A stretch of 64,000 bases of DNA from Haliovirga abyssi (GCF_030295325.1 NZ_AP027060.1:233552-297551), one strand, 5' to 3'. Shown: positions 17,001 through 33,252, counted from the first letter of the stretch. A program made the numbers and translations. Notes: generated by a model not told the origin, from the letters alone.

Positions 17001-18216
17001 TTTGTGTGAATGTTAATAAATTAAATATTTCAGAAAAAATCTTTGATATATTTTTAATATTAATTGTCTTTATATAATACTCTCCAGGCATTAATAAAAT
17101 ATTTCTACTTCTATAGTTCCCATTGACTTCATCTTTTTTTATTGAAATTTCTTTTAATAAATTATAATCTTTATCTAATAATTGAGCTTTATTAAATATT
17201 TCTTTTCCTAAGTTAATATAATATAGATCTTTATTTAATATTTTCACTTTAAATATATTATCTGATATTTTTTCTAATAATATTGTATTTTTAAATTTAT
17301 TTATCTCTTCTAATTGAATTGATTTTTTTACTTTACTTTTTATAGAATAAAAATTTTCATATTTATTTTTACTTATATCAATCTTTTCTATATTAAAATT
17401 TTTATCAAGTTTATATACTCCTGGTAAGTCTATATAATAGTTAGAGCTTTTATTATTTTCTATATTATTTGTATTTTCAAAATAAAAATTTATACTTGTA
17501 GTATATGGGAAAATAGTATACTTATATCCTTGTTTTAATTTACTATCTACTATTTTTTTCTTTTCCCAGCCTCTATTATCACTATTATAATTTATTACAT
17601 TATATTTCTCTGTTTGAAAATATAGAGCTATAAATTTTTCTTTACTTGAAACTACCTTTGTTACAAATTCAAGATTTTTATTTTCAAGTTTATAAACTCC
17701 TGCACTATTTATTTTATAACTTGCAGTTTCATAACCTATTTTAAATTCCATATAGTTTGCTGGAATTGTTATCTCTTTATATCCTTCATATATTAAACTC
17801 GAATGCATTAAAATCAATTTTTCTATCCATTTTTTCCCATCTAAACTATATTTTATATATACATTATTTTTATTACTTTTATAATGTATTTGTATTAATG
17901 AACTTGTCATTTGAGAAACAATCCCATTTTCTATTATATATTCTCCTGAATTATTTATATAATATTCTTCGTTCTTACCTACTCCATCAGTTATTTTAAA
18001 TTGAGATTTATTTCCTTTTACAATTGTATAATCATACCCACCATATAAATAACTCTTTATCATCTCTTTCTTAGGCAGCCATCCATTTGTTCCTCTTTCT
18101 TGAATAAATAATTGTTTCTGATTCGCTTTATAATGTATCTTTATACAGTTATCTGTTTTTCCAAAAGATATTAAACTTAAAACTAAAATCCCTAATACTA
18201 TTATTATTTTTTTCAT
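11044..18216 (-). CDS. Full-length Sec-exported Rhs/YD-repeat toxin
   Basis: 2,390 aa. Residues 1-19 are a Sec signal peptide (MKKIIIVLGILVLSLISFG). Modules at about 24-98, 103-180, 190-275 and 645-740 share IHYKxN...YIKYSxDGxxW and resemble CBM25-type carbohydrate-binding domains. The Rhs shell starts near 750 (LVTGDFNYKITDLNLPG), followed by many YD-type repeats. The core closes near 2172 with RARYYSPEIRRFISRDTY and NLYGYSKGNPISYVDPTGN. The tip (about 2185-2390, tip A) contains GVGREQRINILQSF, LALPPNWNLMTGLQQWQV and GGEMQWWV, a pattern seen in other polymorphic toxin tips, activity unknown to me. Rhs shells encapsulate the tip until delivery. A signal peptide and upstream T2SS genes suggest release through GspD rather than a type VI system. 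Confidence 0.9.
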   Translation of the reverse strand: MKKIIIVLGILVLSLISFGKTDNCIKIHYKANQKQLFIQERGTNGWLPKKEMIKSYLYGGYDYTIVKGNKSQFKITDGVGKNEEYYINNSGEYIIENGIVSQMTSSLIQIHYKSNKNNVYIKYSLDGKKWIEKLILMHSSLIYEGYKEITIPANYMEFKIGYETASYKINSAGVYKLENKNLEFVTKVVSSKEKFIALYFQTEKYNVINYNSDNRGWEKKKIVDSKLKQGYKYTIFPYTTSINFYFENTNNIENNKSSNYYIDLPGVYKLDKNFNIEKIDISKNKYENFYSIKSKVKKSIQLEEINKFKNTILLEKISDNIFKVKILNKDLYYINLGKEIFNKAQLLDKDYNLLKEISIKKDEVNGNYRSRNILLMPGEYYIKTINIKNISKIFSEIFNLLTFTQKTYAEEFSVNDNVKLEKVDGWKEVIDYKVEPGEDKNYIHKKIGYNLELGFLTDAKKDISIKFINSTGPSYEKEFKAYKAKNEMYIVKILGVTYREITENNGNIKEINGKNPLEFEVYINGKLQKTYKLDIIGLLSKQKPIIKYPYNNEYNGSLNYLGIGQDNNYIFENRYKYDIDNDNIIDNLKEKNLLLDMGNEVGKYLVKSSEIKKENIVKRIEMSKNVALESSPTVELSKKATIYYLSDWENVYMKVDSDKVPPIKLEKSILYGKIYNKIEIKFEEPLILKFTNNKGDYDKNYEITESGKYIIENGNIKKEIITRGSAENVSNDDNFLNSVANTLTKYKNKADINLVTGDFNYKITDLNLPGKNNLNLKIETIYSTSFYDIEGKFKIGSGWRICFPEIILGYSKFGNNKNKKDILMLSNGSRIEIDNNKLKDHKLNNIKLKKEGNKYYLMNMITGITYVFDNTGKLNFIENRFKDKIIFIYKTNKIIIEDTYKNKIIITNKNNKVTIELPTNKNIEYIKRKGEILTRVDQKNRKTSFDYLKYSIKDEIKREQYQKLLGLLKGNETNVPDDKKEISFSYLNKITENSGKIIKLEYEQFEEKYGRRHDVIYSLCPPPFFYVEDHFELHARKIYYRLKNKIIYKSDDKFKKNEFEFKLIYNYDSQFKNGGYLLAGMKEENYNYDNYDKEKYWFTTTETNSKTNLKTTYLYNWKRLKTNEIKWIDKDKNGQGSDIEKIQCIWYEDYFKDVYPTKVTKSNFYLGKQNNSEIQYYRYYDNGNKKKSVHMDELDYYDRVDKFEYYSTSEGNHFWELPKSIKVGYSGSYDIEKADDSKDLVINKQMDFELTENKKNIGLKIIHNFDADNNPNNIYEKYNYYDDGRLKEISKWDFDRYVAGKESNYKERYEYNDNVNIVTPWNQTYNGYSITKNIYEKDYTGKENIIKSVSNYRKETGNLILLEQLSNNSGDNSKIYKQYDELDRLRYIYNSGDKIFDKEIKYDDTQREIIMEKKAEYANDGIYKVKLKYDIYDNIKEILEYKNNEWNKIKGYEYDEIGRLNSESDAEDNKIIYKYDELNRNTKIIYPKTNNGIIPEKRIKYLDSQYKFNRVKVNIDEEGNHNWNVYDNNDNLQFQCTFSGKKISFEELLTKVNNAEDIIKKLSSNEHISNKEKIDWIAGFRKIKTIINARDVKTIYYYDSLERLIKVEIPTEKIYIKYYYDLLGNIIKILTPKGSIVKQYNKRGELIKEIGKLNSEVLKGINKAEQGKIDEGDLYNIEIKGKTNIYKYDYLGNIIYKKDKKLQEFYYTYDSYNRLQYVYKNKIEEDNKIKEYKYYDDGSIKEVINSLEKESLNYKYYNDGSLKELVYPDGKSVKYEYNKNGNIKKVTDITNKYYKYIYDTRNRLWKIYDNNETDEKIEYQYYMNNKLEKLEEKKDKKTIYSEEYTYDIGNLMTLQGTLNEKKSLDYTYDYDKVGNLTTEINNISNQKNIYMYDGVNRLIRNLKINNGNDSIDRGYTYTTSGNISMEKYKVKVNNNWNETGGLWYNYNEDDELINITKWKGVKSNNNIWECKKEKNSFEYDDNGNLRNKSINGEKTEAYEYNIENRLTKYNDIKRGITGIYKYYPTNQRKSKAVNGLETKFYYSNNKIINDISNGEIKRNLFGLRGIIGREINGKNYSYLKNSHGDTLKLFDSSGTIKNNYEYDKYGKELKIEEDITNPFRYSGEYTDEESGLQYLRARYYSPEIRRFISRDTYNGDIKEPLSLNLYGYSKGNPISYVDPTGNSAEYGFLGTKAGEYASEYWANKYIDTDNSLYLMPLFLSSMWTRDTYDKTALTLLGGYAAQMFLLPTVAAESGELITKDSYAGVKQASKYLQNIGVGREQRINILQSFKEGTINMKTADTATYGLRFHDFGEKAYKSGSYLFPTFTNLTNRYGLALPPNWNLMTGLQQWQVQAGTQIITGKAASQLNYGLQYTGGEMQWWVQRQNLIMP
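11700..13633. repeat. Duplicated Rhs core segment, copy in full-length gene
   Basis: Partner of 8640-10573. It covers the last third of the Rhs core up to the tip junction. Confidence 0.93.
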
Positions 18217-18231
18217 TTTAACATTTCCCTC

Positions 18232-19632
18232 CTATTTTCTTACTATTATTTTATACCATCTATTTTCACTTACATCATTATCTATATAATAATTATCAGT
18301 TGTACTTCCTAATATTTTATAATCTATTCCATTTGTACTCATATATATATAATATCCAGTACTTTCATCTATATTTTCCCATTCTAATTTTATATTTGAT
18401 TTTTCAAAATTAACATTATCCATTTGACTTATCCTGAAATTTAACTTCTTAGACAATGTCTTTACACTTTTTTCAATATATTCACTACTAATATTTCCAT
18501 ATACTGCTCTAATTCTAACGTTATAGTTTGTATTTAACTTTAGATTATCTATTAGAATATTCTCTTTTTTCACTGTTTTTTTATTTTTATATTCTGTACT
18601 ATTTGATTCTCTCCATTCTATTTCATACTTTGTACCCTCTGGATATATACTTTTTTTCCATGATAAGTATATTGAATTTCCATCTACTCCATCATCTTTA
18701 AAGTTAATTGGCTTTTCAAGTTCAAGATTAAAAGTAACTTCTTTTTCTTTTAATAATTCTTTATTTTTATTATACGCTTGTACTTTTACTTTATATTCTT
18801 TGTTGTCTCTAATTTCACTCATATAAAATCCATATCCTGTAACGCCTTTATTTGTAGTTTGCTTTATTATTTTTCCATTATTTTCTATGGTAATTTTATA
18901 CTCATCTGCTTCATTTAATTTATTCCATTCAATCTCTATCGTTGGATATGTTTTATCTTTTACTACTAACGAATTTAATCCATTCAATGCTGTCGCCTCT
19001 ATAGTTATTTCATTACTTTTTACTCCATCAATCATCACATATAATTTATGTGTACCTGGATATACTGTCCTATAATATAATTGAGGTAGTTCTATATTTA
19101 TTGTTTTCCCTGAAGGTAAAATATCATATATCTTAACCCTACTTTTTATCTCTTCATAAGGTATCGTCTTATCTACATATACAGGAACTCCTGGAGCAAC
19201 TTGTTCTTTTTCCCAACTATATACATCGAAAGATATATATTCTACTTCTAATCCATCTGCTTTTACCTTCCCATCTGCCTTATCAGACAGCTTAATATGA
19301 TGTATTGGAGCTATTTGATTTCCTGTAATTACTTTTAAATATGCTCCTTTTTCTACTTTAAACTCTCCTTTAATTCTCACTGTTTCTCCTGCTTTTAACA
19401 AAACTTCTCCATTTGGTTTGCTTATTTTTCCTGAATTTATGGTAATTGTCTCATCAGCTTTATAATATTTTCTTGTATCGTCCAATAGATTTACTAATAA
19501 TAACTTTCTTTTTAATAAAGTCAACCTTTCCGATAGAGGTAATGGAGTTAATATTTCAAAATTAACTTGCGAAAATACCGTCCATGACATACTGATAAAA
19601 ATAATTAACCTAAAATATTTTCCTTTATTCAT
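18232..19632 (-). CDS. Secreted fibronectin type III-repeat protein
   Basis: 466 aa with an N-terminal signal peptide (LIIFISMSWTVFSQ, followed by mature VNFEIL). Residues 60-130 look like a beta-rich adhesin segment (TITINSGKISKPNGEVLLKAGETVRIKG), as in proteins that anchor Rhs shells. Three fibronectin III-like units follow: about 215-300 (IEIEWNKLNEADEYKITIEN), 305-390 (IYLSWKKSIYPEGTKYEIEWR) and 395-466 (IKLEWENIDESTGYYIYMS). It lies 15 bp upstream of the Rhs gene in the operon, ribosome-binding site aaggaga. Probably a surface or assembly partner of the Rhs protein; exact role not known. Confidence 0.8.
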   Translation of the reverse strand: MNKGKYFRLIIFISMSWTVFSQVNFEILTPLPLSERLTLLKRKLLLVNLLDDTRKYYKADETITINSGKISKPNGEVLLKAGETVRIKGEFKVEKGAYLKVITGNQIAPIHHIKLSDKADGKVKADGLEVEYISFDVYSWEKEQVAPGVPVYVDKTIPYEEIKSRVKIYDILPSGKTINIELPQLYYRTVYPGTHKLYVMIDGVKSNEITIEATALNGLNSLVVKDKTYPTIEIEWNKLNEADEYKITIENNGKIIKQTTNKGVTGYGFYMSEIRDNKEYKVKVQAYNKNKELLKEKEVTFNLELEKPINFKDDGVDGNSIYLSWKKSIYPEGTKYEIEWRESNSTEYKNKKTVKKENILIDNLKLNTNYNVRIRAVYGNISSEYIEKSVKTLSKKLNFRISQMDNVNFEKSNIKLEWENIDESTGYYIYMSTNGIDYKILGSTTDNYYIDNDVSENRWYKIIVRK

Positions 19633-19660: not shown

Positions 19661-21379
19661 TTAATACTCAAATGTATCTAATCTTTTCTCCAACTCTAAA
19701 ATTATTTTATAATTATTTATTTGGGCATTTCCATAAATTGGATTATTCTTTATATTTAAATATTTTAAAGAATTTAATTCTAACATAACTCTCAAATCAG
19801 TTATTAAATTATTATCTGCATATAAATTTTCTAAATTTGTCATATTATGCAAATAACTAATCTCTTTTATTTTATTATAACTACACTTTAAGTTCCTTAA
19901 ATTCATTAAATTTACTATTGGAAACAAATTATCAATTTTATTGTTACTTATTATTAATTCTTCTAAATTTTTTAAATCATCTAATCCATCTAATTTTATT
20001 ATTTCGTTAAATTTTAAATCTAATATTTTTAATGCAGTTAATTTATCCAATTTTGATATATCTTTTAATTGATTGCCAGACAAATATAATTTTTCCAATT
20101 TTGTTAAATTTTCAATACTAGAAATATCTTCTAACAAATTCCCTTCTAAATTTAATTCTTTCAAATTTACCATATCAGCTAAAGGTAAAATATTTTTTAT
20201 ACTATTTTCACTTAAATCTAATTTTTCTAAATGTTTTAAATTCCCTAAAAAACTTATATCTTCTATGTCATCTCCTATTAAATATAATTCTTTTAAGTTA
20301 TTTAATTTTTTTATAAATTCAAAATCTTTGTTTTCCAAATATGGCAAATATAATTTTTCTAATTTTTTCAAATTCCCTGCTTTTTCTATATTATTAATTT
20401 TATTATGCATAATATCTAACTCTTTTAAATTTTTAATATACTTATCTACATTAAAGTTCTCTATATCATCTTTTTCTAAGTTTAATCTTTCTAAATTCTT
20501 AATATTTTTTAAAAATGAAAAATCTGATATTCTACAGTTTTCAATAGTTAAATCGTTCAAATAATCAAGTTTAGGAATTATAAATTTTATTAACGTTTTA
20601 TTTTCTACACTTTCTATATATAATGTTTTTAAATTTGTAAAATATTTTAATTCCTCTATTAAATCAAACTTGTATATAAGTAAATTTTTAATCTGTTTTA
20701 AATCTTCATAATAAATATTTCTATTTTCAGGAATATCTAGTTTTGCCTTAATTACATTTTCAAAATGTTTATTATAAAAAAATATATAAGTTTTAACAGT
20801 GGATAATCCTTTATCATCAAATGCTATTATTTTTAATTCTATTGTTTTATCTCCCAAATTATAGCTATGATTTAAATTCAACATCAAAAAATTTTCATCT
20901 ATTTCTTCATCTATTTCTCCATCATTCTCCCAATCAATTTGAAACTTTTTTATTTTACCATCTATATCTAAAATATTTCCTAATAAATTTATAATATTAT
21001 TTTCTCTTTTTCCAAGCATATTTAAGACTGGTGGTTTATCAAATTCAACTTCTATACTCTTACTTCTTATCTCTTCTACTTCACATTCTAAAATATATTT
21101 TCCGCTTTTATCTGTTGAAAAAAAATTGTTCTCAATTTTTTGCCCATTAACATAATAATTAATGTGATAATTTGTTAATATATCTCCATATTTATTTTTA
21201 ACTATCCCTGTTAATATTACCTTGTCAACTCCATTAGCTTTTATTAATTTTTTGTTTATAATTAATTCTACTTTATCTATTTTTAGTTTTTCATTTAAAA
21301 AACATCCGCTTAGAAATAATATTAAAAATAATATTATTAATTTATTTTTAATATTATTAATCTTCTCCATATTTAACAT
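19661..21379 (-). CDS. Lipoprotein with PKD-like domain and leucine-rich repeats
   Basis: 572 aa. The signal ends in lipobox LSGC (Cys about 26), so it is predicted to be a lipoprotein. Residues 30-110 resemble a bacterial Ig-like domain (LTGIVKNKYGDILTNYHINYY). Residues 115-205 are PKD-like (DGKIKKFQIDWENDGEID). From about 245 to 560 come leucine-rich repeats of the internalin/SDS22 type (LKNLEELIISNNKIDNL). Internalin-type repeats usually bind proteins, so target or partner recognition is likely. Its start overlaps the end of the upstream lipoprotein gene by 23 bp, indicating coupled translation. Confidence 0.85.
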   Translation of the reverse strand: MLNMEKINNIKNKLIILFLILFLSGCFLNEKLKIDKVELIINKKLIKANGVDKVILTGIVKNKYGDILTNYHINYYVNGQKIENNFFSTDKSGKYILECEVEEIRSKSIEVEFDKPPVLNMLGKRENNIINLLGNILDIDGKIKKFQIDWENDGEIDEEIDENFLMLNLNHSYNLGDKTIELKIIAFDDKGLSTVKTYIFFYNKHFENVIKAKLDIPENRNIYYEDLKQIKNLLIYKFDLIEELKYFTNLKTLYIESVENKTLIKFIIPKLDYLNDLTIENCRISDFSFLKNIKNLERLNLEKDDIENFNVDKYIKNLKELDIMHNKINNIEKAGNLKKLEKLYLPYLENKDFEFIKKLNNLKELYLIGDDIEDISFLGNLKHLEKLDLSENSIKNILPLADMVNLKELNLEGNLLEDISSIENLTKLEKLYLSGNQLKDISKLDKLTALKILDLKFNEIIKLDGLDDLKNLEELIISNNKIDNLFPIVNLMNLRNLKCSYNKIKEISYLHNMTNLENLYADNNLITDLRVMLELNSLKYLNIKNNPIYGNAQINNYKIILELEKRLDTFEY

Positions 21380-22364
21380 AATATCCTATATTTTTAGTAT
21401 AATATTTATTTAACATATCTAAATCTTTTGACTCACTTCCAATCCAAGCAACAAACATCTCACTTTGAATCCAATTATTATTATAATCTTCCAAAGGGAT
21501 ATTTTCCCACCAATTTTCTCCCTTTTTATAAGGAATTACATAATATACCACTAATGAATCTTCAGTAAATACTCCTTTTCTCTCTAATTTTGAAATTGAA
21601 TCATTTAAATTTTTAGTATATATTATCTTTGTAGTTTCTTCACAATAATTTATATATTGATTTTTTGATTGCTTTCTCACATCTATATTCTCTACAAGAG
21701 TATAATATGGAGCAGCCATATATCTTTTAGGCCATTTTTCTTCATTTAACAAAATTACTCCCTTATATACCAAATATCCATCTGGGACTATCTCACTACC
21801 ATCATTATTTAAATTTGGAAATCCTCTATGTACCCATTTTATACCATCAGATAAACTATTTTTTAAATTTGTTTTAAATACTGTTTTTTTCGTTTTAGAT
21901 ATATTCCTAGTTATTTTTATTTCATATCCCATATTTTCTAAATTTTCTCTATATATTTGTTTTCTTATTTTCTCATCTGCCCAAGGAATAATTTTATTAT
22001 ACTCCGTTGTATACCTACTTGCTGCAATAGCATAACATAATCCTTTTTCAGAATTTTTATAATCCATTATTGGGGGAATATACTCTCCATTTTTAGTAAA
22101 ATCTGGAAAATAATTTTCATCATAAACAATATCTGGCTTACTATCTATATTCCTTTTTATTTTTTTCTTAGAATCAATATTTCTAGTAAAGATAATTTTT
22201 CCATAAATTAAAATTTCTCTCTCACGTTCACTTATTTTTCCTGTTTTTATTACTTTTGATTTTATTTTATTTCTTTCTTCTACTTTATTATAAGAATATT
22301 GTTTTATACATCCATTTAAAACTAATACAGTTATCAATAACATAAATCCTATTTTATTCTTCAT
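21357..22364 (-). CDS. Uncharacterised lipoprotein with a Cys-protease-like motif
   Basis: 335 aa with lipobox LNGC (Cys 19). The body is not recognised. The segment SEKGLCYAIAASRY (about 105-118) resembles the nucleophile region of papain-like cysteine peptidases, and later His and Asp/Asn residues (HRGFPNLNNDG) could complete a site; speculative. A processing or maturation role for the co-transcribed Rhs toxin would fit. Start with aaggaga upstream; 13 bp after the last fibre-like gene. Confidence 0.6.
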   Translation of the reverse strand: MKNKIGFMLLITVLVLNGCIKQYSYNKVEERNKIKSKVIKTGKISEREREILIYGKIIFTRNIDSKKKIKRNIDSKPDIVYDENYFPDFTKNGEYIPPIMDYKNSEKGLCYAIAASRYTTEYNKIIPWADEKIRKQIYRENLENMGYEIKITRNISKTKKTVFKTNLKNSLSDGIKWVHRGFPNLNNDGSEIVPDGYLVYKGVILLNEEKWPKRYMAAPYYTLVENIDVRKQSKNQYINYCEETTKIIYTKNLNDSISKLERKGVFTEDSLVVYYVIPYKKGENWWENIPLEDYNNNWIQSEMFVAWIGSESKDLDMLNKYYTKNIGYYVKYGED

Positions 22365-22377: not shown

Positions 22378-23565
22378 CTATTTATTTTTTAATTTTGCTA
22401 TCTCATTTTTCATATCTTCATTCTCTTTCTTAAGCTCTATCATATACAAAGTAAGCTCCTCTACCTTTTGCAATAACTTTGCCTGCATATCTCCTACACT
22501 TACACCTTTGCTTTTCACCTCTTTTTCACTTGGAATATCTGGTAAATGTTTATTTGATTTTACAAATTTTGCTACTTCTTCAAGTGGTCTTAATTTGTAA
22601 TTATTTTCAAATACATAATCTGCCCATACATTTTGTGTTACTACTAATTCTGACGTATGCAAAGTCCCGTTTATACTTGCAGAACCTTCTACTTGCAATT
22701 TTTGTCCTGTGTCATTTGATTTGCCTATTAATACATTCCCTCCTCGTCCATTTATTATTGTTCTATTTTTACTATACCAATTTATATATGTAGAAAAATT
22801 TCCGTTCTTTGCATCTAAATGTAAATTACCATTTGTTGCTGCTACCGATGCGTAAGATGTTACTCTTCCATTACCTCCCACTTGAAGATATTCGCCCCAT
22901 GAAGAATTAGGTCCATATAATGTATATCTATCTTTATATAAATGAAGTGCTGCTTTTGGATTTGCTGTTCCTATTCCTACATTTCCATTAAAAGAAGCAT
23001 TACCACTATAACTCATCCCATTAGAATTAACATAAGAATCAACTGATGTTTTAGGCTTATGATAAGTGATCCAATCTTTATGATGCCCTTCTTCTTGTGG
23101 ATAACCATTTTCATCAAGATATACTTTTGGCACATTAATCATATCATTGTTACTTCTGTAACGATATGTTGTCCCACCACCTCTTAACCATATTAATATA
23201 CATGAACTGCTATTATTTCCAGTTACATCTTTCCAACCAGCTACAAATCTATTCCCACTATTTCTTATATCAGCATCAATAAATGCTGATCCATGTCCCC
23301 AATTTGTAGTATGAAATCTAAATTTTGCAATTATTGTCCCTCTCCATGATGAATTTACATGTGTATCTGCCCTTGTTATCTCTAATTCTGTTGCTCCATT
23401 GGTCCAATTTGTATTTCTCCATAATACGGGATAAAATTTATCAAAATCCCCTCCTACATTAAATACTCTAATTTCTGGTGTAGTTAATGTAGTCCCTGTA
23501 AGATCTGCTCCAAATGATATTATGCTTGAAATAACTATTAAAATTACTAAAACTATTTTTCGCAC
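22378..23565 (-). CDS. Secreted fibre-like protein 5
   Basis: 395 aa, GTG start with ggaggag upstream, signal peptide MRKIVLVILIVISSIISFG. The middle holds NGNVGIGTANPKAALHLYKD, the GNVGIGTxxP signature of trimeric tail-fibre/adhesin-type proteins. The last 85 residues carry the domain shared by five paralogues: WADYVFENNYKLRPLEEVAKFVK, HLPDIPSEKEV, GVSVGDMQAKLLQKVEELTLYMIEL, then a coiled coil. In Bacteroidota, proteins with this C-terminus often lie beside Rhs genes. The N-terminal region (20-190) is unique, so it probably sets binding specificity. Confidence 0.8.
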   Translation of the reverse strand: MRKIVLVILIVISSIISFGADLTGTTLTTPEIRVFNVGGDFDKFYPVLWRNTNWTNGATELEITRADTHVNSSWRGTIIAKFRFHTTNWGHGSAFIDADIRNSGNRFVAGWKDVTGNNSSSCILIWLRGGGTTYRYRSNNDMINVPKVYLDENGYPQEEGHHKDWITYHKPKTSVDSYVNSNGMSYSGNASFNGNVGIGTANPKAALHLYKDRYTLYGPNSSWGEYLQVGGNGRVTSYASVAATNGNLHLDAKNGNFSTYINWYSKNRTIINGRGGNVLIGKSNDTGQKLQVEGSASINGTLHTSELVVTQNVWADYVFENNYKLRPLEEVAKFVKSNKHLPDIPSEKEVKSKGVSVGDMQAKLLQKVEELTLYMIELKKENEDMKNEIAKLKNK

Positions 23566-23583
23566 TCCTAAATCTCCTCCATT

Positions 23584-24996
23584 TTACTTTTTTTCTAACT
23601 TATTAATTTTTTCCTTCATTTTATTTTGATTTTTTCTTAAATCTTCATTCTCTTTCTTAAGCTCTATCACATACAAAGTAAGCTCCTCTACCTTTTGCAA
23701 TAACTTTGCCTGCATATCTCCTACACTTACTCCTTTACTCTTTACCTCTTTTTCACTTGGAATATCTGGCAAATGTTTATTCTCTTTTACATAATTTGAT
23801 ACTTCTTCTAATGGCTTTAATTTATAACTTTTTTCAAATACATTATCGTACCATTTATCTTGAGTTACCACTATCTCTCTAGCTCCAATAGTCCCTTCTA
23901 CTGCAAGTTTATAATTATTCTTATTTGAAGTTGTCCCTATTAATACGTTTCCACCTTTTTGACTTTGAATACTAATTGGTTTCCCTGCATTACTATATAT
24001 TTCATTATAGGTCTTTTTATTTGATAAAATTAAAGTATTTGTCCAGTCTTTATCGGTTATTCCAATTCCAGAGTCTCCATTCAAAACTCTAAAATATTGT
24101 CCGCCATTTTCTCCTTTTACATTAAAAATATCTACATTTACTTTATCTGTATTGATTAAAACCTTCCCTTGTATATCTAATTTTGCTCTTGGGTTTGATG
24201 TGCCTATTCCTACATTCCCCTTCAATCTATTATTTACAATATCTTCTGCACTTGGCATCCAACTTTTCCCATTATTTATCAATCTAGCATAAGGTAAAGC
24301 TAAATATATTTCTATTGGTCCATCATTGCCTACAGCTTCAAATCCTAGCGAGCATTGATTCCCTCCTAACCTTGTTGTTTCGCTAATAGTAGTATTAAAT
24401 TCCCATTTATACCATCCTTGCGCTCCCTTATCTGTTGTTGTTTTATATATTGTTGTTCCTCTCCTTATACTTCCACTTCCATTATCATATCCCGCATCTG
24501 TTCCAAAACAAACATAATCTCCCTTGACTATTTTTATCCAAACTGAAAAATGAATTTTTCCTCCATTTACAACTGGGCCAACATAGGGCAATCTAACTAT
24601 CTGATAACCTCTTGCATCTTTTGATACATTCCCAGTTACTTTTAATATGTGCCCATCACCTCTTCCATTCCACCCGTCTCCTAAACCACCTCTTGATATT
24701 CTAGGTCCTTTGTAGTATCTCCTAAACCAATATGGAGTAGTTTTTGTAGCACTTTCTACATCTTTAGTTGCATTCGCTGGACTGGTGGCTACATATGGTC
24801 CTTCAAATGCTTTCGTATATGGATGTACTGCCTCTATTGTCATTCCTGTCGTAGAATATCCTTTCGGTGTTTTCCCATCACTATTTAATTCATTCATAAA
24901 TCCATTATTTATTAAGTTATATGGAACTGTTTCATTTGCCATTATGATATTCGCAAAGTTTAATAATATAATTATATACATTATTATTTTTTTCAT
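23584..24996 (-). CDS. Secreted fibre-like protein 4
   Basis: 470 aa from ATG 24996, which has ggaggtaag directly upstream. Signal peptide MKKIIMYIIILLNFANIIMA. Residues 30-230 look like a lectin/carbohydrate-binding jelly-roll (IHFSVWIKIVKGDY, WYKWEFNTTISETTRLGG). Then GNVGIGTSNPRAKLDIQG, beta-rich repeats, and the shared C-terminal domain (WYDNVFEKSYKLKPLEEVSNYVK, HLPDIPSEKEV, GVSVGDMQAKLLQKVEELT) with a terminal coiled coil. The unique jelly-roll suggests surface glycan binding; inference. Confidence 0.8.
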   Translation of the reverse strand: MKKIIMYIIILLNFANIIMANETVPYNLINNGFMNELNSDGKTPKGYSTTGMTIEAVHPYTKAFEGPYVATSPANATKDVESATKTTPYWFRRYYKGPRISRGGLGDGWNGRGDGHILKVTGNVSKDARGYQIVRLPYVGPVVNGGKIHFSVWIKIVKGDYVCFGTDAGYDNGSGSIRRGTTIYKTTTDKGAQGWYKWEFNTTISETTRLGGNQCSLGFEAVGNDGPIEIYLALPYARLINNGKSWMPSAEDIVNNRLKGNVGIGTSNPRAKLDIQGKVLINTDKVNVDIFNVKGENGGQYFRVLNGDSGIGITDKDWTNTLILSNKKTYNEIYSNAGKPISIQSQKGGNVLIGTTSNKNNYKLAVEGTIGAREIVVTQDKWYDNVFEKSYKLKPLEEVSNYVKENKHLPDIPSEKEVKSKGVSVGDMQAKLLQKVEELTLYVIELKKENEDLRKNQNKMKEKINKLEKK

Positions 24997-25008
24997 TCTT
25001 ACCTCCAT

Positions 25009-26004
25009 CTATTTTTTTACTTCTAACTTTTCTAATTTTTTTTCAAGAATTTCATTTTTTTCATTCAATAAATTAATTTTCTTATCTTGCTCTATCATAT
25101 ACAAAGTAAGCTCCTCTACCTTTTGCAATAACTTTGCCTGCATATCTCCTACACTTACTCCTTTACTCTTTACCTCTTTTTCACTTGGAACATCTGGTAA
25201 ATGTTTATTTACTTTTACAAATTTTGCTACTTCTTCAAGTGGTCTTAATTTGTAATTATTTTCAAATACATAATCTGCCCATACATTTTGTATTACTACT
25301 AATTCTGACGTATGTAGAGTTCCATTTATGCTTACAGAACCTTCTACTTGCAATTTTTGTCCTGTATCATTTGCTTTGCCTATTAATACATTCCCATTTA
25401 TACTTGCAGAGCCTTTTATTATTTCATTCCCATATATGTTCTCTGTTTCTGTAAAAAATTCTTTTTCTTCTGTTATTTGTTCTCCTGGTTTCACTGATAT
25501 TTTTTTCCCATTTGGCCAAGTTGCATTTCCTCCCAATACAGGTTTTAATAACTCTCCATCACTCACATAAGCCCATCCTGTAAATTCTATGGCATATAGT
25601 GTAGACCTAATATTTGCTCTTAAAGCAATATATTTATCTCCTTTATATCTAACTGTAACTAATTTCCAATCCTCAAATCTTGACTTTACAAAACCTCTAT
25701 TTGTATTATAAGCTGTTGCTGTATTAACTTCAATTAACACCTTTCTATTCCATGAATGTTTATCCCCTCTAATAGCGGATATTTTTCCCATAACATAATA
25801 ATTATTCATTAATTTCCCATCATATGCTTTATGTAATAATATATAAAAATTAGATGGATCTCCAAAAGAATGGGAATTATTAGCTATTTTATAATTTACA
25901 TAATAATTTTTATATCCTTTTACCTGAAGGGTTCCATTTATAGTATCTCCAAATATAAATAAAGTATTTATAAGTAACAATATAATGACCAAAATTTTTA
26001 TCAT
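25009..26004 (-). CDS. Secreted fibre-like protein 3
   Basis: 331 aa, signal peptide MIKILVIILLLINTLFIFG. The N-terminal 160 residues are unique (GTLQVKGYKNYYVNYKIA, with SFGDPSNFYILL), followed by NGNVLIGKANDTGQKLQVEGS and the shared C-terminal domain ending in a long coiled coil (INLLNEKNEILEKKLEKLE). Only 12 bp separate it from the next gene. Its 3' part is near-identical in DNA to the corresponding parts of genes 22378 and 26019. Confidence 0.8.
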   Translation of the reverse strand: MIKILVIILLLINTLFIFGDTINGTLQVKGYKNYYVNYKIANNSHSFGDPSNFYILLHKAYDGKLMNNYYVMGKISAIRGDKHSWNRKVLIEVNTATAYNTNRGFVKSRFEDWKLVTVRYKGDKYIALRANIRSTLYAIEFTGWAYVSDGELLKPVLGGNATWPNGKKISVKPGEQITEEKEFFTETENIYGNEIIKGSASINGNVLIGKANDTGQKLQVEGSVSINGTLHTSELVVIQNVWADYVFENNYKLRPLEEVAKFVKVNKHLPDVPSEKEVKSKGVSVGDMQAKLLQKVEELTLYMIEQDKKINLLNEKNEILEKKLEKLEVKK

Positions 26005-26018
26005 AGTTTTTATTCTCC

Positions 26019-26900
26019 TTATTTTTTTTCAAGTTTATTTATTCGTTCTTTTAAATATTCATTTTCTTTCTTAAGCTCTATCATATACAACGTAAGCTCC
26101 TCTACCTTTTGCAATAACTTTGCCTGCATATCTCCTACACTTACTCCTTTACTCTTTACCTCTTTTTCACTTGGTATATCTGGTAAGCGTTTATTTACTT
26201 TTACAAATTTCGCTACTTCATTCAATGTTCTCAACTTATAATTATCCTCAAATACATAATCTGCCCATGGAGTTTCACTTAATCTTAGGTCTGTTGCTGC
26301 TATTGTTTGTGTAACTATTATTTCATTTGTTGTTAGTGTCCCTTTTATCTTTGCATTGCCATTTACATCTAATTTAGCACTTGGAGTAGTTGTTCCTATT
26401 CCTACATTTCCAACATTATCTGTAGCATATATCGTATTAATTGAAAAATTCATCTTTTTTTTATTACTCTTGTTATAATCTTTTATTTCAACTGTTTTTA
26501 AACCTGTTGAATCAGCATAAAATGCCTCTATTGTAAAAAATGGATATGGCTCATTATTATTTGTAACAACAACATCATAGCTATTTCCATTATCATATAT
26601 TTCTAAATTAAAATATCTATATCCTCCGCCTCCATGTATTTCTCTATTAACCTTCAACCCCTCCCTAGAAGAAATATAGTATGTAGTTTCTCCAAGCGTA
26701 GTATTTATCCAACTTCCTCCAAATACTTTTATCATAAGTTTTTGATAATCACTAGAAGAACTATATGGAAGATTTCCTACAAATTTTGAATTTGTATTTG
26801 AAGTGCCATAACCTATAAATGTTGTTCCCACTTTCACTGGTTCTGTTGCAAAACAAACTACTGATAAAATAAAACTTATAAATATAACAATTTTTTTCAT
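26019..26900 (-). CDS. Secreted fibre-like protein 2
   Basis: 293 aa, signal peptide MKKIVIFISFILSVVCFA. A unique N-terminal domain of about 130 residues (QKLMIKVFGGSWINTTLGET), then GNVGIGTTTPSAKLDVNGN, KGTLTTNEIIVTQTIAATDL and the shared C-terminal domain. The last 120 codons are nearly the same DNA as in gene 26909-28054, a sign of recent duplication or gene conversion. Confidence 0.8.
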   Translation of the reverse strand: MKKIVIFISFILSVVCFATEPVKVGTTFIGYGTSNTNSKFVGNLPYSSSSDYQKLMIKVFGGSWINTTLGETTYYISSREGLKVNREIHGGGGYRYFNLEIYDNGNSYDVVVTNNNEPYPFFTIEAFYADSTGLKTVEIKDYNKSNKKKMNFSINTIYATDNVGNVGIGTTTPSAKLDVNGNAKIKGTLTTNEIIVTQTIAATDLRLSETPWADYVFEDNYKLRTLNEVAKFVKVNKRLPDIPSEKEVKSKGVSVGDMQAKLLQKVEELTLYMIELKKENEYLKERINKLEKK

Positions 26901-26908
26901 GTTTTATA

Positions 26909-28054
26909 TTATCTCCTTTCTAAATTTTTTATTTTATTTTTCAACATATTAATTTCTTTAGTTTGTTCTATATTTTTCTTATCTTGCTCTATCATATACA
27001 AAGTAAGCTCCTCTATCTTCTGCAATAACTTCGCCTGCATATCTCCTACACTTACTCCTTTACTTTTCACCTCTTTTTCACTTGGTATATCTGGTAAGTG
27101 TTTATTTACTTTTACAAATTTCGCTACTTCATTCAATGTTCTCAACTTATAATTATCCTCAAATACAAAATCTGCCCATGGAGTTTCACTTAATCTTAGG
27201 TCTGTTGCTGCTATTGTTTGTGTAACTATTATTTCATTTGTTGTTAGTGTCCCTTTTATCTTTGCGTTTCCATTTACATCTAATTTAGCACTTGGAGTAG
27301 TTGTTCCTATTCCGACTTCTCCGCTTCTTTTTATAAATAATCTGCTTCTCCAACCATTGTAATTTCCTTCTATACTATATCCTCCATCCATTCCAGCATC
27401 ACTTCGCATTCCTACATTCCAACCATATCCATTATCTTTAGTTTTAAACATATGTCTTGCAAAGGCTCCAGCTCCATCAGCTTCTAATAATACATCTACT
27501 GAACCTTTCTTCTTGATATGTAATATCCTTTTAGGCCTTTCTACTCCAATTCCAACTTTACTATCCATCAATGTTAATCCACTTTCTTGGTCTCTTACAT
27601 TTGATAACCTTATAAATCTACTGTGATATAAAAATAATTTCTTAGAATAACCATCATCCCCAGTTATATACGAATCTCCCGCTAAATTTGAATTATCTTT
27701 AAAAATTAATTTCTTATATTCCCCATTTAATTTTATATTTCCATTTACTTCTAATTTTTCACTAGGATTAGATGTCCCTATCCCTACATTTCCATTCTCT
27801 CTTAAGGTTAAAACATTCAAGCTTTTCATAGTAACTGACTCAGAAAATATGAAATCAAATCTTTTCCCATATTCATTTCCATAAGTAGTTAATCTCCAAG
27901 TATGTGTATCTCCCCTTGGTGTAAAATCTAATGGAGTTATTTTAGAGCGAGTCAAGTCCAATTCATTATTAATTACCAAATTTTCCATAACCTCCCCACC
28001 AAAACTTACAATCCCAACCATAACCATAATAATCCCTATCAATACTTTTCTCAT
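26909..28054 (-). CDS. Secreted fibre-like protein 1
   Basis: 381 aa from ATG 28054 (ggagaggttagag upstream; an earlier in-frame ATG inside gspD lacks a signal peptide). Signal peptide MRKVLIGIIMVMVGIVSFG. It has two GVGIGxxxP-type repeats (GNVGIGTSNPSEKLEVNGN and GEVGIGTTTPSAKLDVNGN) and a middle region resembling Bacteroidota tail-fibre proteins (KLFLYHSRFIRLSNV), then the shared C-terminal domain. It starts 41 bp after the gspD stop codon, joining the fibre genes to the T2SS genes. Confidence 0.8.
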   Translation of the reverse strand: MRKVLIGIIMVMVGIVSFGGEVMENLVINNELDLTRSKITPLDFTPRGDTHTWRLTTYGNEYGKRFDFIFSESVTMKSLNVLTLRENGNVGIGTSNPSEKLEVNGNIKLNGEYKKLIFKDNSNLAGDSYITGDDGYSKKLFLYHSRFIRLSNVRDQESGLTLMDSKVGIGVERPKRILHIKKKGSVDVLLEADGAGAFARHMFKTKDNGYGWNVGMRSDAGMDGGYSIEGNYNGWRSRLFIKRSGEVGIGTTTPSAKLDVNGNAKIKGTLTTNEIIVTQTIAATDLRLSETPWADFVFEDNYKLRTLNEVAKFVKVNKHLPDIPSEKEVKSKGVSVGDMQAKLLQKIEELTLYMIEQDKKNIEQTKEINMLKNKIKNLERR

Positions 28055-28094: not shown

Positions 28095-29855
28095 TTATTG
28101 TGCTTTTTTAATAAGCTCACTCATATCTCTTGCCATTTTTATAGTTTCTCCATCTTCTACTATTCTTGGTGTAATATAAATTAATAATTCTGTTTGGTTG
28201 CTATCTCTACTTTTTGTTTTAAATAACTCGCCTAATAAAGGGATATCTTTTAATATTGGAATTCCTGACTCTTTTTCTGTTATTACATTTTGCTCTAACC
28301 CGCCAATTACTATGGTTTCTCCATCTTTTACTCTTACTGTTGTTTTGGCTTCTCTTTTACTTACTGTTGGTGGTCCTTCTGCTGGTGCTGCTCCTCCTAT
28401 ATTGCTTATTGTTGGATTTAACTTTAAACTTATATCTCCTGTTGAATTTATCCATGGAGTTACATCTAGTGTTACTCCAGCATTTACACTTTTATAATCT
28501 ATCTTTTCTTTGCCTTCGTTATCTAAAGTTACAACTTTATAATACTGAACTGTTCCTACATTTATTACTGCCTTTTCTCCGTTTATTGTTGTTATACTTG
28601 GCTTGGCTTTAATTTTTGCTAATCCTTGTTGTATTAACAATTGTAATTTTGTATAAAATACATCGTTTAATTTTGTTGCATTTTCATATGTAAACTCTCC
28701 TGAATTTGTATCAAATACATTTAATTTTTTTCCCCTTGTTGTTACCCCCTCTAATTGTAATCCTAGTTTCTGTGTATTATTTTTATTTTTTGATATTTCT
28801 ACTATTAATGCTTCAATTTTTATTTGTGGTACTTTTTCATCTAATTTTTTTATATATGATTTCAATTTTGACATATCTTTATCCGTCCCTGAAAACAGAA
28901 GAGCATTCTGATTTGAAATAACTTTTATATTTGCAACTGAAAAATCATTTGGAAGTAAAGATGGCACTTTCTCAGCCTGAATAAATTTCAATTTTATTAA
29001 TTCTGTTGAATTAAATATATCATTCCCTACTCCCATGCTATTTTTTCTCGTAATTATATAAATCTTATTTTCTATTTTATATGTATAATTAGCTCCCTCT
29101 AGTAAAATGTTTATAACTTCATTTAAATTAGCATTTTCTAATTTTAATGATATCGACTCAACTCCCGAAGTTAATATCATCATATTTAAACCTGCTATTG
29201 TTGATATTTTTTTTAATATTTTTATTACATTTTCATTTTCTGCATCTATAGACACTTTCCCCTTATTATATGATATTTTTAGTTTACTTGGTATTCTTGC
29301 TCTGCTTATTCCAGATGTAATTTTATAAATCCCTCTATCTTTCATAATAGAATATCCATTAGTTTCAAATAATACAACTAATCCTGAATCTATATCCACA
29401 TCTCTTACTCTGCCTGATATATTTCCTTTTACATTATTATCTACAACAATATTCAATCCTGCTTTTTCTGTAAGTTCTTTTGCTACCTCTCGTATATCAA
29501 CATCATATATGCTATAACTTAGTTTATTCCCGTTAATACTTATTTCTGCCATATTTTTTGGAATAACTTTCCTTTTTACATAAAAAGTATTATCTGTTAT
29601 TTTTATAATCTCATAATTATATACTTTTTCTAATATACTTAATGTATTCTTTAGAGTAACATTTTCAAGATTAAGTGATATCTTACCATGTATTTCAGGA
29701 CTTGATATTATATTCATTCCACTTTGTTTTGTAAGTAATACAAATACATCTTTTGCTTCTGCTCCTAAAACGCTTATATTTATCAGTTTTTCTTGTGCAA
29801 ATACAATGTTTGTATACATAATAATCATAAAAATAATAAACATTAACTTTTTCAT
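28095..29855 (-). CDS. gspD: Type II secretion outer-membrane secretin GspD (PilQ-like)
   Basis: 586 aa with signal peptide (MKKLMFIIFMIIMYTNIVFA). Three STN/N-type domains occupy about 20-265 (VLGAEAKDVFVLLTKQSGMNI; YDVDIREVAKELTEKAGLNIV; ENVIKILKKISTIAGLNMM), then an N1-like domain and the secretin channel (about 380-575), with VKDGETIVIGGL and GIPILKDIPLLGELF. It would form the outer-membrane channel for folded substrates. The start overlaps the gspM stop by 4 bp. At 586 aa it is shorter than classical GspD (about 650), closer to PilQ-type channels. Confidence 0.9.
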   Translation of the reverse strand: MKKLMFIIFMIIMYTNIVFAQEKLINISVLGAEAKDVFVLLTKQSGMNIISSPEIHGKISLNLENVTLKNTLSILEKVYNYEIIKITDNTFYVKRKVIPKNMAEISINGNKLSYSIYDVDIREVAKELTEKAGLNIVVDNNVKGNISGRVRDVDIDSGLVVLFETNGYSIMKDRGIYKITSGISRARIPSKLKISYNKGKVSIDAENENVIKILKKISTIAGLNMMILTSGVESISLKLENANLNEVINILLEGANYTYKIENKIYIITRKNSMGVGNDIFNSTELIKLKFIQAEKVPSLLPNDFSVANIKVISNQNALLFSGTDKDMSKLKSYIKKLDEKVPQIKIEALIVEISKNKNNTQKLGLQLEGVTTRGKKLNVFDTNSGEFTYENATKLNDVFYTKLQLLIQQGLAKIKAKPSITTINGEKAVINVGTVQYYKVVTLDNEGKEKIDYKSVNAGVTLDVTPWINSTGDISLKLNPTISNIGGAAPAEGPPTVSKREAKTTVRVKDGETIVIGGLEQNVITEKESGIPILKDIPLLGELFKTKSRDSNQTELLIYITPRIVEDGETIKMARDMSELIKKAQ

Positions 29856-30397
29856 CTTTTGCCTCCTTTAATATATGCTATTAAGATTATGTTTGTCATT
29901 AAAATATCTGTTTTTTTCTTTATCTCAAGAGCTTCAATGTACATTTTTTTTTCATATGAAAATGTTTCTAAAAATGTTATTGTATTTTCATATTCTCCTT
30001 CAAGCAAAATATGAAATGAAATTTTAGTTATACCTACCTTTTTAATTTCTTCAATATTAATACTTTTATTTTTTATTTTTAAATTATCTTTTATACTTTC
30101 TTTATTTATTTTATCCATAATATTAAATTGAACATTTTTAATATTATCATTAAATATTTTTTTTGAAATATCTACCTCGTCATTTTCAATATTTTCCTTT
30201 TGCTTTTTATAGCTTATATAATTTCCTATATCATTTCTAACTAATTTAGATTCAGCTAAAGTTTTTTCTATTTTCATTCCTAATCTCCTGTTTTCATCAA
30301 TCAATGGCAATAAATACCACTTTACATATGAAACAGAAATTATTATAATTATTGTTATTAACATCATTATCTTTTCTCTTTTTTGCAATTTACTCAA
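29852..30397 (-). CDS. gspM: GspM/PilO-like inner-membrane assembly protein
   Basis: 181 aa with one N-terminal membrane helix (IMMLITIIIIISVSYVKWYLLPLI), a coiled-coil stretch and a ferredoxin-like C-terminal domain (ISFHILLEGEYENTITFLETF), the PilO/GspM layout. It pairs with the GspL/PilN-like protein encoded just upstream, overlapping it by 8 bp. Role: inner-membrane platform of the T2SS. Identified by architecture and position. Confidence 0.75.
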   Translation of the reverse strand: MSKLQKREKIMMLITIIIIISVSYVKWYLLPLIDENRRLGMKIEKTLAESKLVRNDIGNYISYKKQKENIENDEVDISKKIFNDNIKNVQFNIMDKINKESIKDNLKIKNKSINIEEIKKVGITKISFHILLEGEYENTITFLETFSYEKKMYIEALEIKKKTDILMTNIILIAYIKGGKR

Positions 30398-31484
30398 CTA
30401 ATTCACCTTCTATTCTAAATCTCTCTTTTTGCTTTTCTGTTATTATACTTCCTCTAAATTTTAATTTTAAAAATTTTTTCGACTGTTCAAGTTTTTTTAA
30501 AAATTCAGAAGCATTTTTGCTCTTTCCTGATATTCCCTGTAGCTTGTTCTTTTGAAATGTAATTCTGTCTATTTCAGTTGTAGAATCAGAAACATCCGCT
30601 ATCACCGCTAACCATTTTATATAACTTTTACTCTCAAATACTGATACTAACTCTTTTAATTTTTCTACTTCTTTTGTTTTACTTTTAAGATATTTTTTCA
30701 TTTCCATAATATTGCCTTCAGGTTTTTTTAGTTTTTCATTTATGCTTTTAAGTTTTAACAAACTGTTTTTATAGTTTTGATTCATATATATGAGTTTTGT
30801 ATTATACATAATGAATATTATAGTTACCATAAAAATAGATGCATATTTAAAAATAATTCTACTTTTATTTATATCTTTTACTGATATTAAAAAATTTAAT
30901 TTATTCAATTTTTTTCCTGCTTTTTTTCTTAATTTATCAATTTTTTCATAACTATCAAGATTATACACATCTCCATCTGATTCAAATAACTCCCTTTTAT
31001 CTTCTGTTTTGTATAATTCTATATCTTTTTCTTTATATACATATTTATTTTCTAATCTATAAATAAGTCTCTTTTCATTTGTAAATAAAATTTCTGTTAA
31101 TGGATATATCCCTCCTATATTTACTCTTTTATCAAATTTCATTTTAAACTTTCTTTTTTCTACTATAAATATCTTTAAATTCAAATTATTATCTTTTTTA
31201 GATATAGTGTATTTATAATTTACATCTTCTCTTGGAAATAGTAGATTATTTAAAACATTCATCTCTATCATATTATTTATTCTACTTTTTAATTTCTTTA
31301 ATATGGTTATTTGTTTATATATCACATAATCAGGTGTTATAAACCACTGTATATTGACTTTTTTATAATTTTCACTTAGATACCTATTTAATTCTTCAAT
31401 TCCTTCAAATGTTTTTTTCTCATTATTACTAAAAAAACAAATATGAATATCTCTAAAAGATATCACGTAACAATTTTCAATCAT
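30390..31484 (-). CDS. gspL: GspL/PilMN-like inner-membrane platform protein
   Basis: 364 aa from ATG 31484 (gaggaga upstream). A cytoplasmic N-terminal region (about 1-210) is followed by one membrane helix (IFKYASIFMVTIIFIMYNT), a coiled coil (about 240-290) and a periplasmic PilN-like domain (YIKWLAVIADVSDSTTEIDRI). This is the GspL arrangement, although the cytoplasmic part is too diverged to show an actin-like fold. Links the ATPase GspE to the pseudopilus. Confidence 0.75.
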   Translation of the reverse strand: MIENCYVISFRDIHICFFSNNEKKTFEGIEELNRYLSENYKKVNIQWFITPDYVIYKQITILKKLKSRINNMIEMNVLNNLLFPREDVNYKYTISKKDNNLNLKIFIVEKRKFKMKFDKRVNIGGIYPLTEILFTNEKRLIYRLENKYVYKEKDIELYKTEDKRELFESDGDVYNLDSYEKIDKLRKKAGKKLNKLNFLISVKDINKSRIIFKYASIFMVTIIFIMYNTKLIYMNQNYKNSLLKLKSINEKLKKPEGNIMEMKKYLKSKTKEVEKLKELVSVFESKSYIKWLAVIADVSDSTTEIDRITFQKNKLQGISGKSKNASEFLKKLEQSKKFLKLKFRGSIITEKQKERFRIEGELVE

Positions 31485-31510
31485 ACCGTTTCTCCTCAAA
31501 TTTTATCATT

Positions 31511-32017
31511 TTATAAATCTCTCATTAAATAGATTGATATATTTTTTGTTATTATTTTATTGGATTTTTTAAAAAATCTTATAGTAATTACTTTTGGCAT
31601 TTTCTTCTCTTTAAGGAAGTCCCATTCACTCTTCCATTCACCATTTAAACCTATATAGATAAATTCCACTCTTGCGTACTCTTCTTCCTCTGTTAAATCA
31701 AATTCCTTTTTATTCTCTTTAATAATTAGTTTATAACCATTAAAAAATATCTTAATATGCTTTTCTTCATTTTTTAATATCCTATCAAATTCCATCTCAT
31801 TATATTTACCTTTAAAATCCATAGTTGAATTAATATTTCGCAAGTTATATTTTAATATCTCTACTATTTTATCTTCTGTCCCTATTAATTTTTCTGTTTT
31901 CATATTTAAACTTTTATTTATTATAGATAGAAAAGCAATTGCAGAATAGATTACAAGACTGGATATAGAAATAGCTATAAGTAATTCTATTAATGTAAAT
32001 CCTTTCTCAATTTTCAT
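31511..32017 (-). CDS. gspJ: Minor pseudopilin GspJ-like
   Basis: 168 aa from ATG 32017 (gaggaagc upstream). Type III signal KGFTLIELLIAISISS with Gly at -1 and Glu at +5, then a hydrophobic helix and a C-terminal beta domain (WKSEWDFLKEKKMPKVITIRF typical of GspJ). It needs a prepilin peptidase, which is not encoded in this window. Start overlaps the gspI stop by 11 bp. Confidence 0.8.
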   Translation of the reverse strand: MKIEKGFTLIELLIAISISSLVIYSAIAFLSIINKSLNMKTEKLIGTEDKIVEILKYNLRNINSTMDFKGKYNEMEFDRILKNEEKHIKIFFNGYKLIIKENKKEFDLTEEEEYARVEFIYIGLNGEWKSEWDFLKEKKMPKVITIRFFKKSNKIITKNISIYLMRDL

Positions 32018-32378
32018 TTTTCTTTGCTTCCTCTTGGTTAAAAATTGCAGATAATATATCATGTTTTTCAATTCCTTTTATTTTATAATTTGCTCTAAAT
32101 GTTCTTTTAATCAGATTATTTTCTATTCTTTCTTCTGTTATATTCCAATTAATTTCTATTCTATTAATATCATCTACACCATTTAAACCATAACTTATTT
32201 TATCATTTATCTCTTCTAGCTTGTTCGCCCCTAATTTGTGTACTTTAGATTTCACTATATAATTTATATTGTTATTAGATAACTTTATCGTAAGTGAAAT
32301 AAATGACGGAACTGACATTGCTAAAATTGCTGCTGCAACAAGAACTTCTATAAGGGTAAATCCTCTATTATTCGACAT
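32007..32378 (-). CDS. gspI: Minor pseudopilin GspI-like
   Basis: 123 aa. Prepilin signal MSNNRGFTLIEVLVAAAILA with conserved Glu+5, then a short globular part with INWNITEERIENNLIKRTF, the W-containing strand usual in GspI. Overlaps both neighbours by about 11 bp. Expected to form the pseudopilus tip with GspJ and GspK. Confidence 0.82.
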   Translation of the reverse strand: MSNNRGFTLIEVLVAAAILAMSVPSFISLTIKLSNNNINYIVKSKVHKLGANKLEEINDKISYGLNGVDDINRIEINWNITEERIENNLIKRTFRANYKIKGIEKHDILSAIFNQEEAKKNEN

Positions 32379-32796
32379 TTACTTCACCTGTTTCTTCCTG
32401 AATCTCTATATTTAGTGTTCCATATGAAGTTTTTATTTCTACATTTTCACCTAACACTTTTCCATATTTATTAAATATTATTTTATTACTTCCATTATCT
32501 GATTCGTTGTTAAAATTCATATTATTTTCATCCCATTTAACTGATATAATCTTTTTTTCAGATATAAGTTCTCTTATATCTTTTATTTCTATATCTTTTT
32601 TTTCAATAATTGCTTTATCTTTAAAGTATTGAAATTTCTCTTCTACCCCTTTTAATATAAGTTTTCTATTCATTGATTTATCATATCTTTGCATATTATT
32701 TATTGTAATTGTCAATATCAACGAAAGAATAACTACTACTATTATCATTTCTATAAAAGTAAAACCTTTTTCTTTTTTACCAGTTTGTAATATCAT
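32368..32796 (-). CDS. gspH: Minor pseudopilin GspH-like
   Basis: 142 aa. Prepilin signal KEKGFTFIEMIIVVVILSLILT, 30-residue hydrophobic helix, then a beta-rich domain. Its position between gspG and gspI and its length fit GspH. Overlaps gspG by 20 bp. Confidence 0.8.
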   Translation of the reverse strand: MILQTGKKEKGFTFIEMIIVVVILSLILTITINNMQRYDKSMNRKLILKGVEEKFQYFKDKAIIEKKDIEIKDIRELISEKKIISVKWDENNMNFNNESDNGSNKIIFNKYGKVLGENVEIKTSYGTLNIEIQEETGEVNVE

Positions 32797-33205: not shown

Positions 33206-33252
33206 TAAAAACTCCTCTCACAAAATATAATAAACTTCTTTTTTAAAGACAC

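What the first reader, a model, noticed from the sequence alone, without database searches (positions are those of the whole stretch)
22378..28054. Five tandem fibre-like paralogues with a homogenised C-terminal domain
N-terminal domains are unrelated, while the last 75-120 codons are almost the same DNA. This points to gene conversion keeping a common docking or export domain while heads diversify, like a set of interchangeable receptors. Similar C-termini are known beside Rhs genes in Bacteroidota, suggesting transfer across phyla.
Basis: partly seen in the sequence, partly recalled or inferred. Interest (0 to 1): 0.68.

Follow-up and report, generated by a model that had tools for sequence, protein, structure and literature searches.

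The report
Secreted fibre array beside T2SS and Rhs
Five fibre genes with different heads and one shared, apparently recombination-homogenised C-terminal domain of Bacteroidota origin sit between a type II secretion operon and a large Rhs gene in a fusobacterium, an arrangement also found in Bacteroidota around a different secretion machine, which suggests that such machines export interchangeable fibres together with Rhs proteins.

Summary
Five tandem genes (22378-28054, minus strand) have different heads and share a ~75-residue C-terminal domain whose 90-nt core is 87-100% identical DNA in every pair; synonymous codons show a conversion mosaic. The five tails form one clade, while four of the five heads have their relatives in separate Bacteroidota fibres, so tails do not follow heads. 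The domain occurs in 1 of 98 genomes of the window's phylum (inferred to be Fusobacteriota) but widely in Bacteroidota, so transfer is likely. It has no Pfam, NCBIfam or PDB relative.

Fibre tails, T2SS-like genes and Rhs genes are also neighbours in Bacteroidota. The window's T2SS, however, is a paralogue of a chromosomal T2SS of the same genome, which lies beside a chitinase gene; it is not a Bacteroidota machine. The same fibre family has thus been joined to two unrelated T2SS-type machines. Best reading: a T2SS copy dedicated to exporting fibres and Rhs. The tail is not an obligatory T2SS signal, since many tail-bearing genomes lack a T2SS. Export itself is untested.

The parts
22378..23565 (-). 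Fibre g1 (395 aa): signal peptide, tail-fibre-like head, NVGIGT stalk, shared C-terminal domain (22390-22641)
23584..25008 (-). Fibre g2 (474 aa; likely start Met5): own head, stalk repeats, shared domain (23614-23868)
25009..26004 (-). Fibre g3 (331 aa): own head, shared domain (25048-25296)
26019..26900 (-). Fibre g4 (293 aa): own head, NVGIGTTTP stalk, shared domain (26031-26279)
26909..28054 (-). Fibre g5 (381 aa from ATG 28054; open frame from 28120 overlaps gspD): stalk repeats, shared domain (26945-27190)
22438..22527 (-). 90-nt homogenised core of the shared domain in g1; the other copies are 23665-23754, 25093-25182, 26079-26168 and 26990-27079
28095..36526 (-). T2SS operon: gspC (35966-36526), gspE (34560-35966), gspF (33358-34551), gspG (32777-33205), gspH/I/J-like pseudopilins (31511-32796), gspL-like (30390-31499), gspM-like (29852-30397), gspD (28095-29855)
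   Evidence: for D, E, F, C; (paralogue matches) for G, H, I, J, L, M
36603..37598 (+). Protein with a pilin-like N-terminus, GspK-like, on the opposite strand
   Evidence: no Pfam match; by sequence reading only
21357..22364 (-). 335-aa lipoprotein of unknown family, next in the cluster
   Evidence: lipobox read by eye
19661..21379 (-). Lipoprotein with leucine-rich repeats
18232..19632 (-). Fibronectin type III protein with signal peptide
11044..18216 (-). Rhs protein (2390 aa) with signal peptide, RHS repeats and Rhs core

Best explanation
The region is one co-directional cluster in which a second T2SS of the genome is coupled to its own cargo: five secreted fibres and an Rhs protein, plus surface lipoproteins. 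Each fibre has a Sec signal peptide, its own head, a short beta stalk and a common helical C-terminal domain ending in a long helix, which most likely clamps the fibre as a trimer and fits it to a common partner. The fibre genes came from Bacteroidota; the T2SS is a copy of the resident chromosomal T2SS. Gene conversion between the 3' ends keeps the common domain uniform while the heads differ. Shown: anatomy, conversion mosaic, head/tail discordance, foreign origin of the tails, native T2SS, recurrence of the fibre/T2SS/Rhs neighbourhood in Bacteroidota. Inferred: export through the T2SS, trimerisation, receptor binding by the heads, joint action with Rhs.
For: Gene order from gspC to Rhs on one strand with gaps of 0-28 nt around the fibres and no minus-strand terminator-like site between gspD and Rhs. 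Same neighbours in Pedobacter, Puteibacter and Marinifilum. In 121 Sphingobacteriaceae genomes tail and GspE co-occur (22 both, 6 and 12 single, 81 neither; odds ratio 24.8, p 1.3e-10), and 76 of 129 listed tails lie within 40 kb of gspE. Rhs within 40 kb of gspE in 20 of 24 genomes, 2.8 expected. The window's T2SS groups with the chromosomal paralogue (GspE 100/99), not with the Bacteroidota clade; all nine other parts tested match that paralogue best, so the pairing of this fibre family with a T2SS-type machine arose at least twice. The paralogue operon lies beside a GH18/GH19 chitinase gene, a classical kind of T2SS substrate. Heads g1-g4 each have relatives in T2SS-side arrays of Bacteroidota. 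Tail model pLDDT 90 with a 35-residue C-terminal helix.
Against: 16 of 20 tail-bearing genomes lack the GspE. In the Puteibacter family tail (9 genomes) and GspE (11) co-occur once in 100, as by chance. Counts are not corrected for common descent. The GspE row of the window has a long branch. No export, trimer or receptor data exist.
Confidence: 0.6

Rival explanations
1. The common domain is only an assembly domain (trimerisation or folding clamp) of a general Bacteroidota fibre family that travels with Rhs islands; its place beside a T2SS is a by-product of where such islands settle, and export uses another route.
For: Tails in genomes without GspE; no co-occurrence in the Puteibacter family; tails near Rhs without T2SS in 20 of 81 clusters, 3.35 expected.
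Against: The window's cluster joins the fibres to a native T2SS copy rather than to a Bacteroidota island, and linkage to gspE is strong in Sphingobacteriaceae.
Confidence: 0.27
2. The likeness of the tails is due to recent tandem duplication of one fibre gene followed by fast change of the heads under diversifying selection, with no conversion.
For: The five tails are one clade.
Against: Heads g1-g4 each have separate Bacteroidota relatives (48-55% identity for g1), so they did not arise in place from one head; different tracts have different partners; identity drops on both sides of the core.
Confidence: 0.08
3. The genes are remnants of prophage tail fibres.
For: Stalk repeats match tail-fibre PHROGs, and the g1 head model resembles phage tail fibres.
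Against: Each protein begins with a Sec signal peptide; the neighbours are T2SS and surface-protein genes; the C-terminal domain is absent from 50,697 phage records and found once among 2.9 million viral contigs.
Confidence: 0.03

Closest known systems
Bacteroidetes 'T2SS' of Cytophaga hutchinsonii (Wang 2017, PMC5553014; Denise 2019, PMC6668835)
   Same: A T2SS-like machine of this kind (found by GspE likeness) stands beside tail-bearing fibre arrays and Rhs genes in Sphingobacteriaceae, Puteibacter and Marinifilum.
   Different: The window's machine is a T2SS of its own phylum, outside the Bacteroidota GspE clade. Neither paper's passages read here mention fibres of this family or Rhs.
Phage tail fibres
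   Same: Head fold of g1 (Foldseek E 1.2e-6, TM 0.60, 29% identity to Aeromonas phage Ah1 tail fibre) and NVGIGT stalk repeats.
   Different: Proteins with signal peptides and a C-terminal domain practically absent from phages.
Rhs polymorphic toxins labelled T2SS/Sec-dependent (Zhang 2012, PMC3482391)
   Same: The Rhs protein has a signal peptide, an Rhs core and alternative tips nearby.
   Different: Zhang et al. use T2SS/Sec as the default label for toxins with a signal peptide; here an actual T2SS operon and a fibre array adjoin the Rhs gene.
Peptidase_S74 (endosialidase-type C-terminal chaperone of fibres)
   Same: C-terminal helical domain of fibres that ends in a coiled-coil-like helix.
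   Different: No Pfam match, no conserved cleavage serine, profile comparison without support.

Membership tests
Canonical type II secretion system (window machine) | GspC, D, E, F, G and minor pseudopilins in one operon | tested here: met
   Secretin, T2SSF, T2SSC (just under its cut-off) and GspE models; G, H, I, J, L, M by match to the chromosomal paralogue operon. NCBIfam GspE and GspF scores stay below the curated cut-offs.
Bacteroidota T2SS-like system | GspE inside the Bacteroidota clade | tested here: not met
   Bacteroidota rows are one clade 100/100; the window's row is with its own-genome paralogue 100/99.
T2SS substrate | Export across the outer membrane depends on the T2SS | not testable with these tools
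   Only Sec signal peptides (sequence) and gene neighbourhood are available.
Peptidase_S74 | Match to PF13884 | tested here: not met
   None of 85 tails matches PF13884 at E 0.01; hhalign probability 5.6%.
Peptidase_S74 | Conserved serine at the start of the domain for self-cleavage | tested here: not met
   The position between W and D in W-x-D is A, S, P or Y across the family; no serine is invariant.
T9SS C-terminal sorting domain | Match to a T9SS sorting-domain model | tested here: not met
   No such Pfam or NCBIfam model among the matches of the five proteins at E 1.
Rhs polymorphic toxin | RHS repeats and Rhs core followed by variable tips, with further tips nearby | tested here: met
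   Core and repeats; a second core with another tip at 7987-10620. Toxicity not tested.
Phage tail fibre | Part of a phage structural gene cluster | tested here: not met
   Neighbours are T2SS, lipoprotein, Fn3 and Rhs genes.

The most novel reading that the evidence does not exclude
The C-terminal domain is a transferable assembly-and-targeting tag accepted by T2SS-type machines of unrelated lineages, so that a bank of fibres with exchangeable heads, kept compatible by gene conversion, is secreted together with Rhs proteins as one system; the Bacteroidota T2SS-like machine would then be largely a fibre and Rhs secretion system.
Probability: 0.15. Interest if true: 0.85.

Novelty: new variant of a known kind. 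Interest (0 to 1): 0.62.

Why it matters
T2SS substrates share no known linear signal (established knowledge), and the Bacteroidota T2SS-like system has been called a possible new type of secretion system (PMC6668835). A recurrent set of fibres with one common C-terminal domain, Rhs proteins and T2SS-type machines, joined independently in two phyla, names concrete candidate substrates and a domain to delete. It also defines a widespread domain family absent from the curated libraries searched here.

Tried and rejected
Tail as an obligatory T2SS signal: rejected by genomes with tails but no GspE and by lack of co-occurrence in the Puteibacter family. Tail as a Peptidase_S74 relative: no support. 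Known fold for the tail: Foldseek and VIA-align gave nothing above noise, which does not prove a new fold. Transfer of the whole T2SS with the fibres from Bacteroidota: not supported by the GspE tree or by best matches of the other parts. Tail homogenisation as a rule in all arrays: not so; within-genome tail identity is high in some arrays (0.69-0.83) but near the between-genome mean of 0.47 in others. The first regular-expression scan of neighbours failed through wrong patterns and was redone. Naming the organism: genome handles are nameless; a region of one genome of the same order matches Fusobacterium best, so Fusobacteriota is inferred; from memory the two-replicon layout recalls Haliovirga (taxonomy), a lead only. 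Literature searches found no paper on this domain or gene set in the open-licence library.

Full report
OBSERVATION. The window holds five tandem minus-strand genes, here g5 (26909-28054), g4, g3, g2 and g1 (22378-23565) in order of transcription. Their 3' ends form a five-copy repeat. BLASTN between the genes gives 80-95% identity over about 210-350 nt at the 3' end, plus short stalk repeats. In 30-nt steps identity is 87-100% in a 90-nt core for every pair and falls to about 30-60% on both sides of the shared tract. Two pairs, g1-g3 and g4-g5, share a longer tract reaching about 210-240 nt upstream of the core.

SELECTION OR CONVERSION. Protein conservation could explain similar tails, so silent positions were counted. 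In the 30 core codons, 24-29 of 28-30 codons with the same residue are the same codon, against 17-18 expected from codon usage of neighbouring genes. In the 33 codons before the core, g1-g3 and g4-g5 have 31 of 31 identical; g2 shows a weak excess with g1 and g3; the other pairs are at chance. This mosaic is what gene conversion or 3' cassette exchange leaves. It rests on one genome; no close relative with the array was available to date the events.

HEADS VERSUS TAILS. Head g1 has relatives in Chitinophaga, Puteibacter and Pedobacter fibres; g2 in one Sphingobacteriaceae array; g3 in Chitinophaga and Pedobacter; g4 in Marinifilum; g5 only through stalk repeats. Most of these relatives carry a tail of the same family. 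In the tail trees the window's five form one clade (SH-aLRT 96; 99/97). Forcing g1's tail to its head family's tails costs 75 log-likelihood units (AU p 0.0007); for g4, g3 and g2 p is 0.042, 0.060 and 0.085 (85 columns, so power is low). Heads have separate histories and tails share one.

ORIGIN. The tail occurs in 1 of 98 genomes of the window's phylum. In the genome collection nearly all hits are Bacteroidota, with a few MAG contigs labelled otherwise, among them Thermochlorobacteriaceae, Saccharibacteria and Patescibacteria. It is absent from annotated phages and found once in IMG/VR. G+C of the fibre stretch is 0.28-0.34 against mostly 0.18-0.28 around it. Transfer from Bacteroidota is the simple reading. 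The window is the last 64 kb of a 297,551-bp contig; the other contig has 2,427,922 bp.

NEIGHBOURHOOD. Upstream is a T2SS operon from gspC to gspD; g5's open frame overlaps gspD. Downstream follow a lipoprotein, an LRR lipoprotein, an Fn3 protein and a 2390-aa Rhs protein, all on one strand with no minus-strand terminator-like site between gspD and Rhs. In Bacteroidota the same neighbours recur: Pedobacter westerhofensis has T2SS genes, five fibres, a large protein and Rhs in a row; Puteibacter and Marinifilum have fibres next to T2SS genes.

STATISTICS. In 121 Sphingobacteriaceae genomes 28 have a full-length GspE match and 34 the tail; 22 have both (Fisher odds ratio 24.8, p 1.3e-10). Of 129 listed tails in GspE-bearing genomes 76 lie within 40 kb of gspE, where about 1.6% would be expected. 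Rhs cores lie within 40 kb of gspE in 20 of 24 genomes (the window's genome included), 2.8 expected. In genomes with tails but no GspE, 20 of 81 tail clusters have an Rhs core within 16 kb, 3.35 expected, 18 of them with one on the same strand. These counts are not corrected for common descent and use listed matches only. The negative result matters as much: in 100 genomes of the Puteibacter family GspE (11) and tail (9) co-occur once, as by chance, and 16 of 20 tail-bearing genomes lack the GspE. The steadier partner of the tail is Rhs; the T2SS is a partner in some lineages.

TWO MACHINES. The window's GspE groups with a chromosomal paralogue of the same genome (100/99) inside its phylum, while Bacteroidota GspE form a separate clade (100/100). 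GspD, E, F, G, H, I, J, L and M all match that paralogue best (GspG 77%). The paralogue operon lies beside a gene with two GH18 and one GH19 chitinase domains, a classical kind of T2SS substrate (established knowledge). So a resident T2SS was probably duplicated and its copy became associated with imported fibres and Rhs, while in Bacteroidota the same fibre family stands beside a different machine. This independent association is the strongest argument for a functional link; it rests mainly on the GspE tree, where the window's row has a long branch.

STRUCTURE. AlphaFold gives the tail a mean pLDDT of 90: three short helices and a 35-residue C-terminal helix. No Pfam, NCBIfam or PDB sequence relative was found and no fold match above noise. 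The g1 head model is moderate (pLDDT 70) and resembles phage tail fibres, best Aeromonas phage Ah1. The design is head, stalk, clamp; trimerisation is inferred.

VERDICT. The functional reading should be widened to a T2SS-linked fibre and Rhs cluster, and narrowed in that the common domain is not in general a dedicated T2SS signal.

Noticed in passing
window 7987-10620 and 2000-2572, minus strand: Near-identical partial copy of the Rhs core with a different tip, and a third short Rhs tip fragment: displaced alternative tips downstream of the full Rhs gene.
   Followed up: partly
L185 and L229 (chromosomal contig C1 about 385-408 kb): The paralogous T2SS operon lies directly downstream of a 1777-aa protein with two GH18 and one GH19 chitinase domains and CBM5/12.
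   Followed up: partly
L023 and L061: The tail domain also occurs on contigs labelled Saccharibacteria and Patescibacteria; contamination or further transfer.
   Followed up: no
G102 and G113 (Puteibacter, Flammeovirga): About 30 tail-bearing matches in one genome, in several arrays.
   Followed up: partly
window 40135-44303, minus strand: Two tandem, related lipoproteins (775 and 580 aa) that look like esterase-type hydrolases; not scanned against profiles.
   Followed up: no
window 36603-37598, plus strand: GspK-like protein with a pilin-like N-terminus stands on the opposite strand to the rest of the T2SS operon.
   Followed up: no
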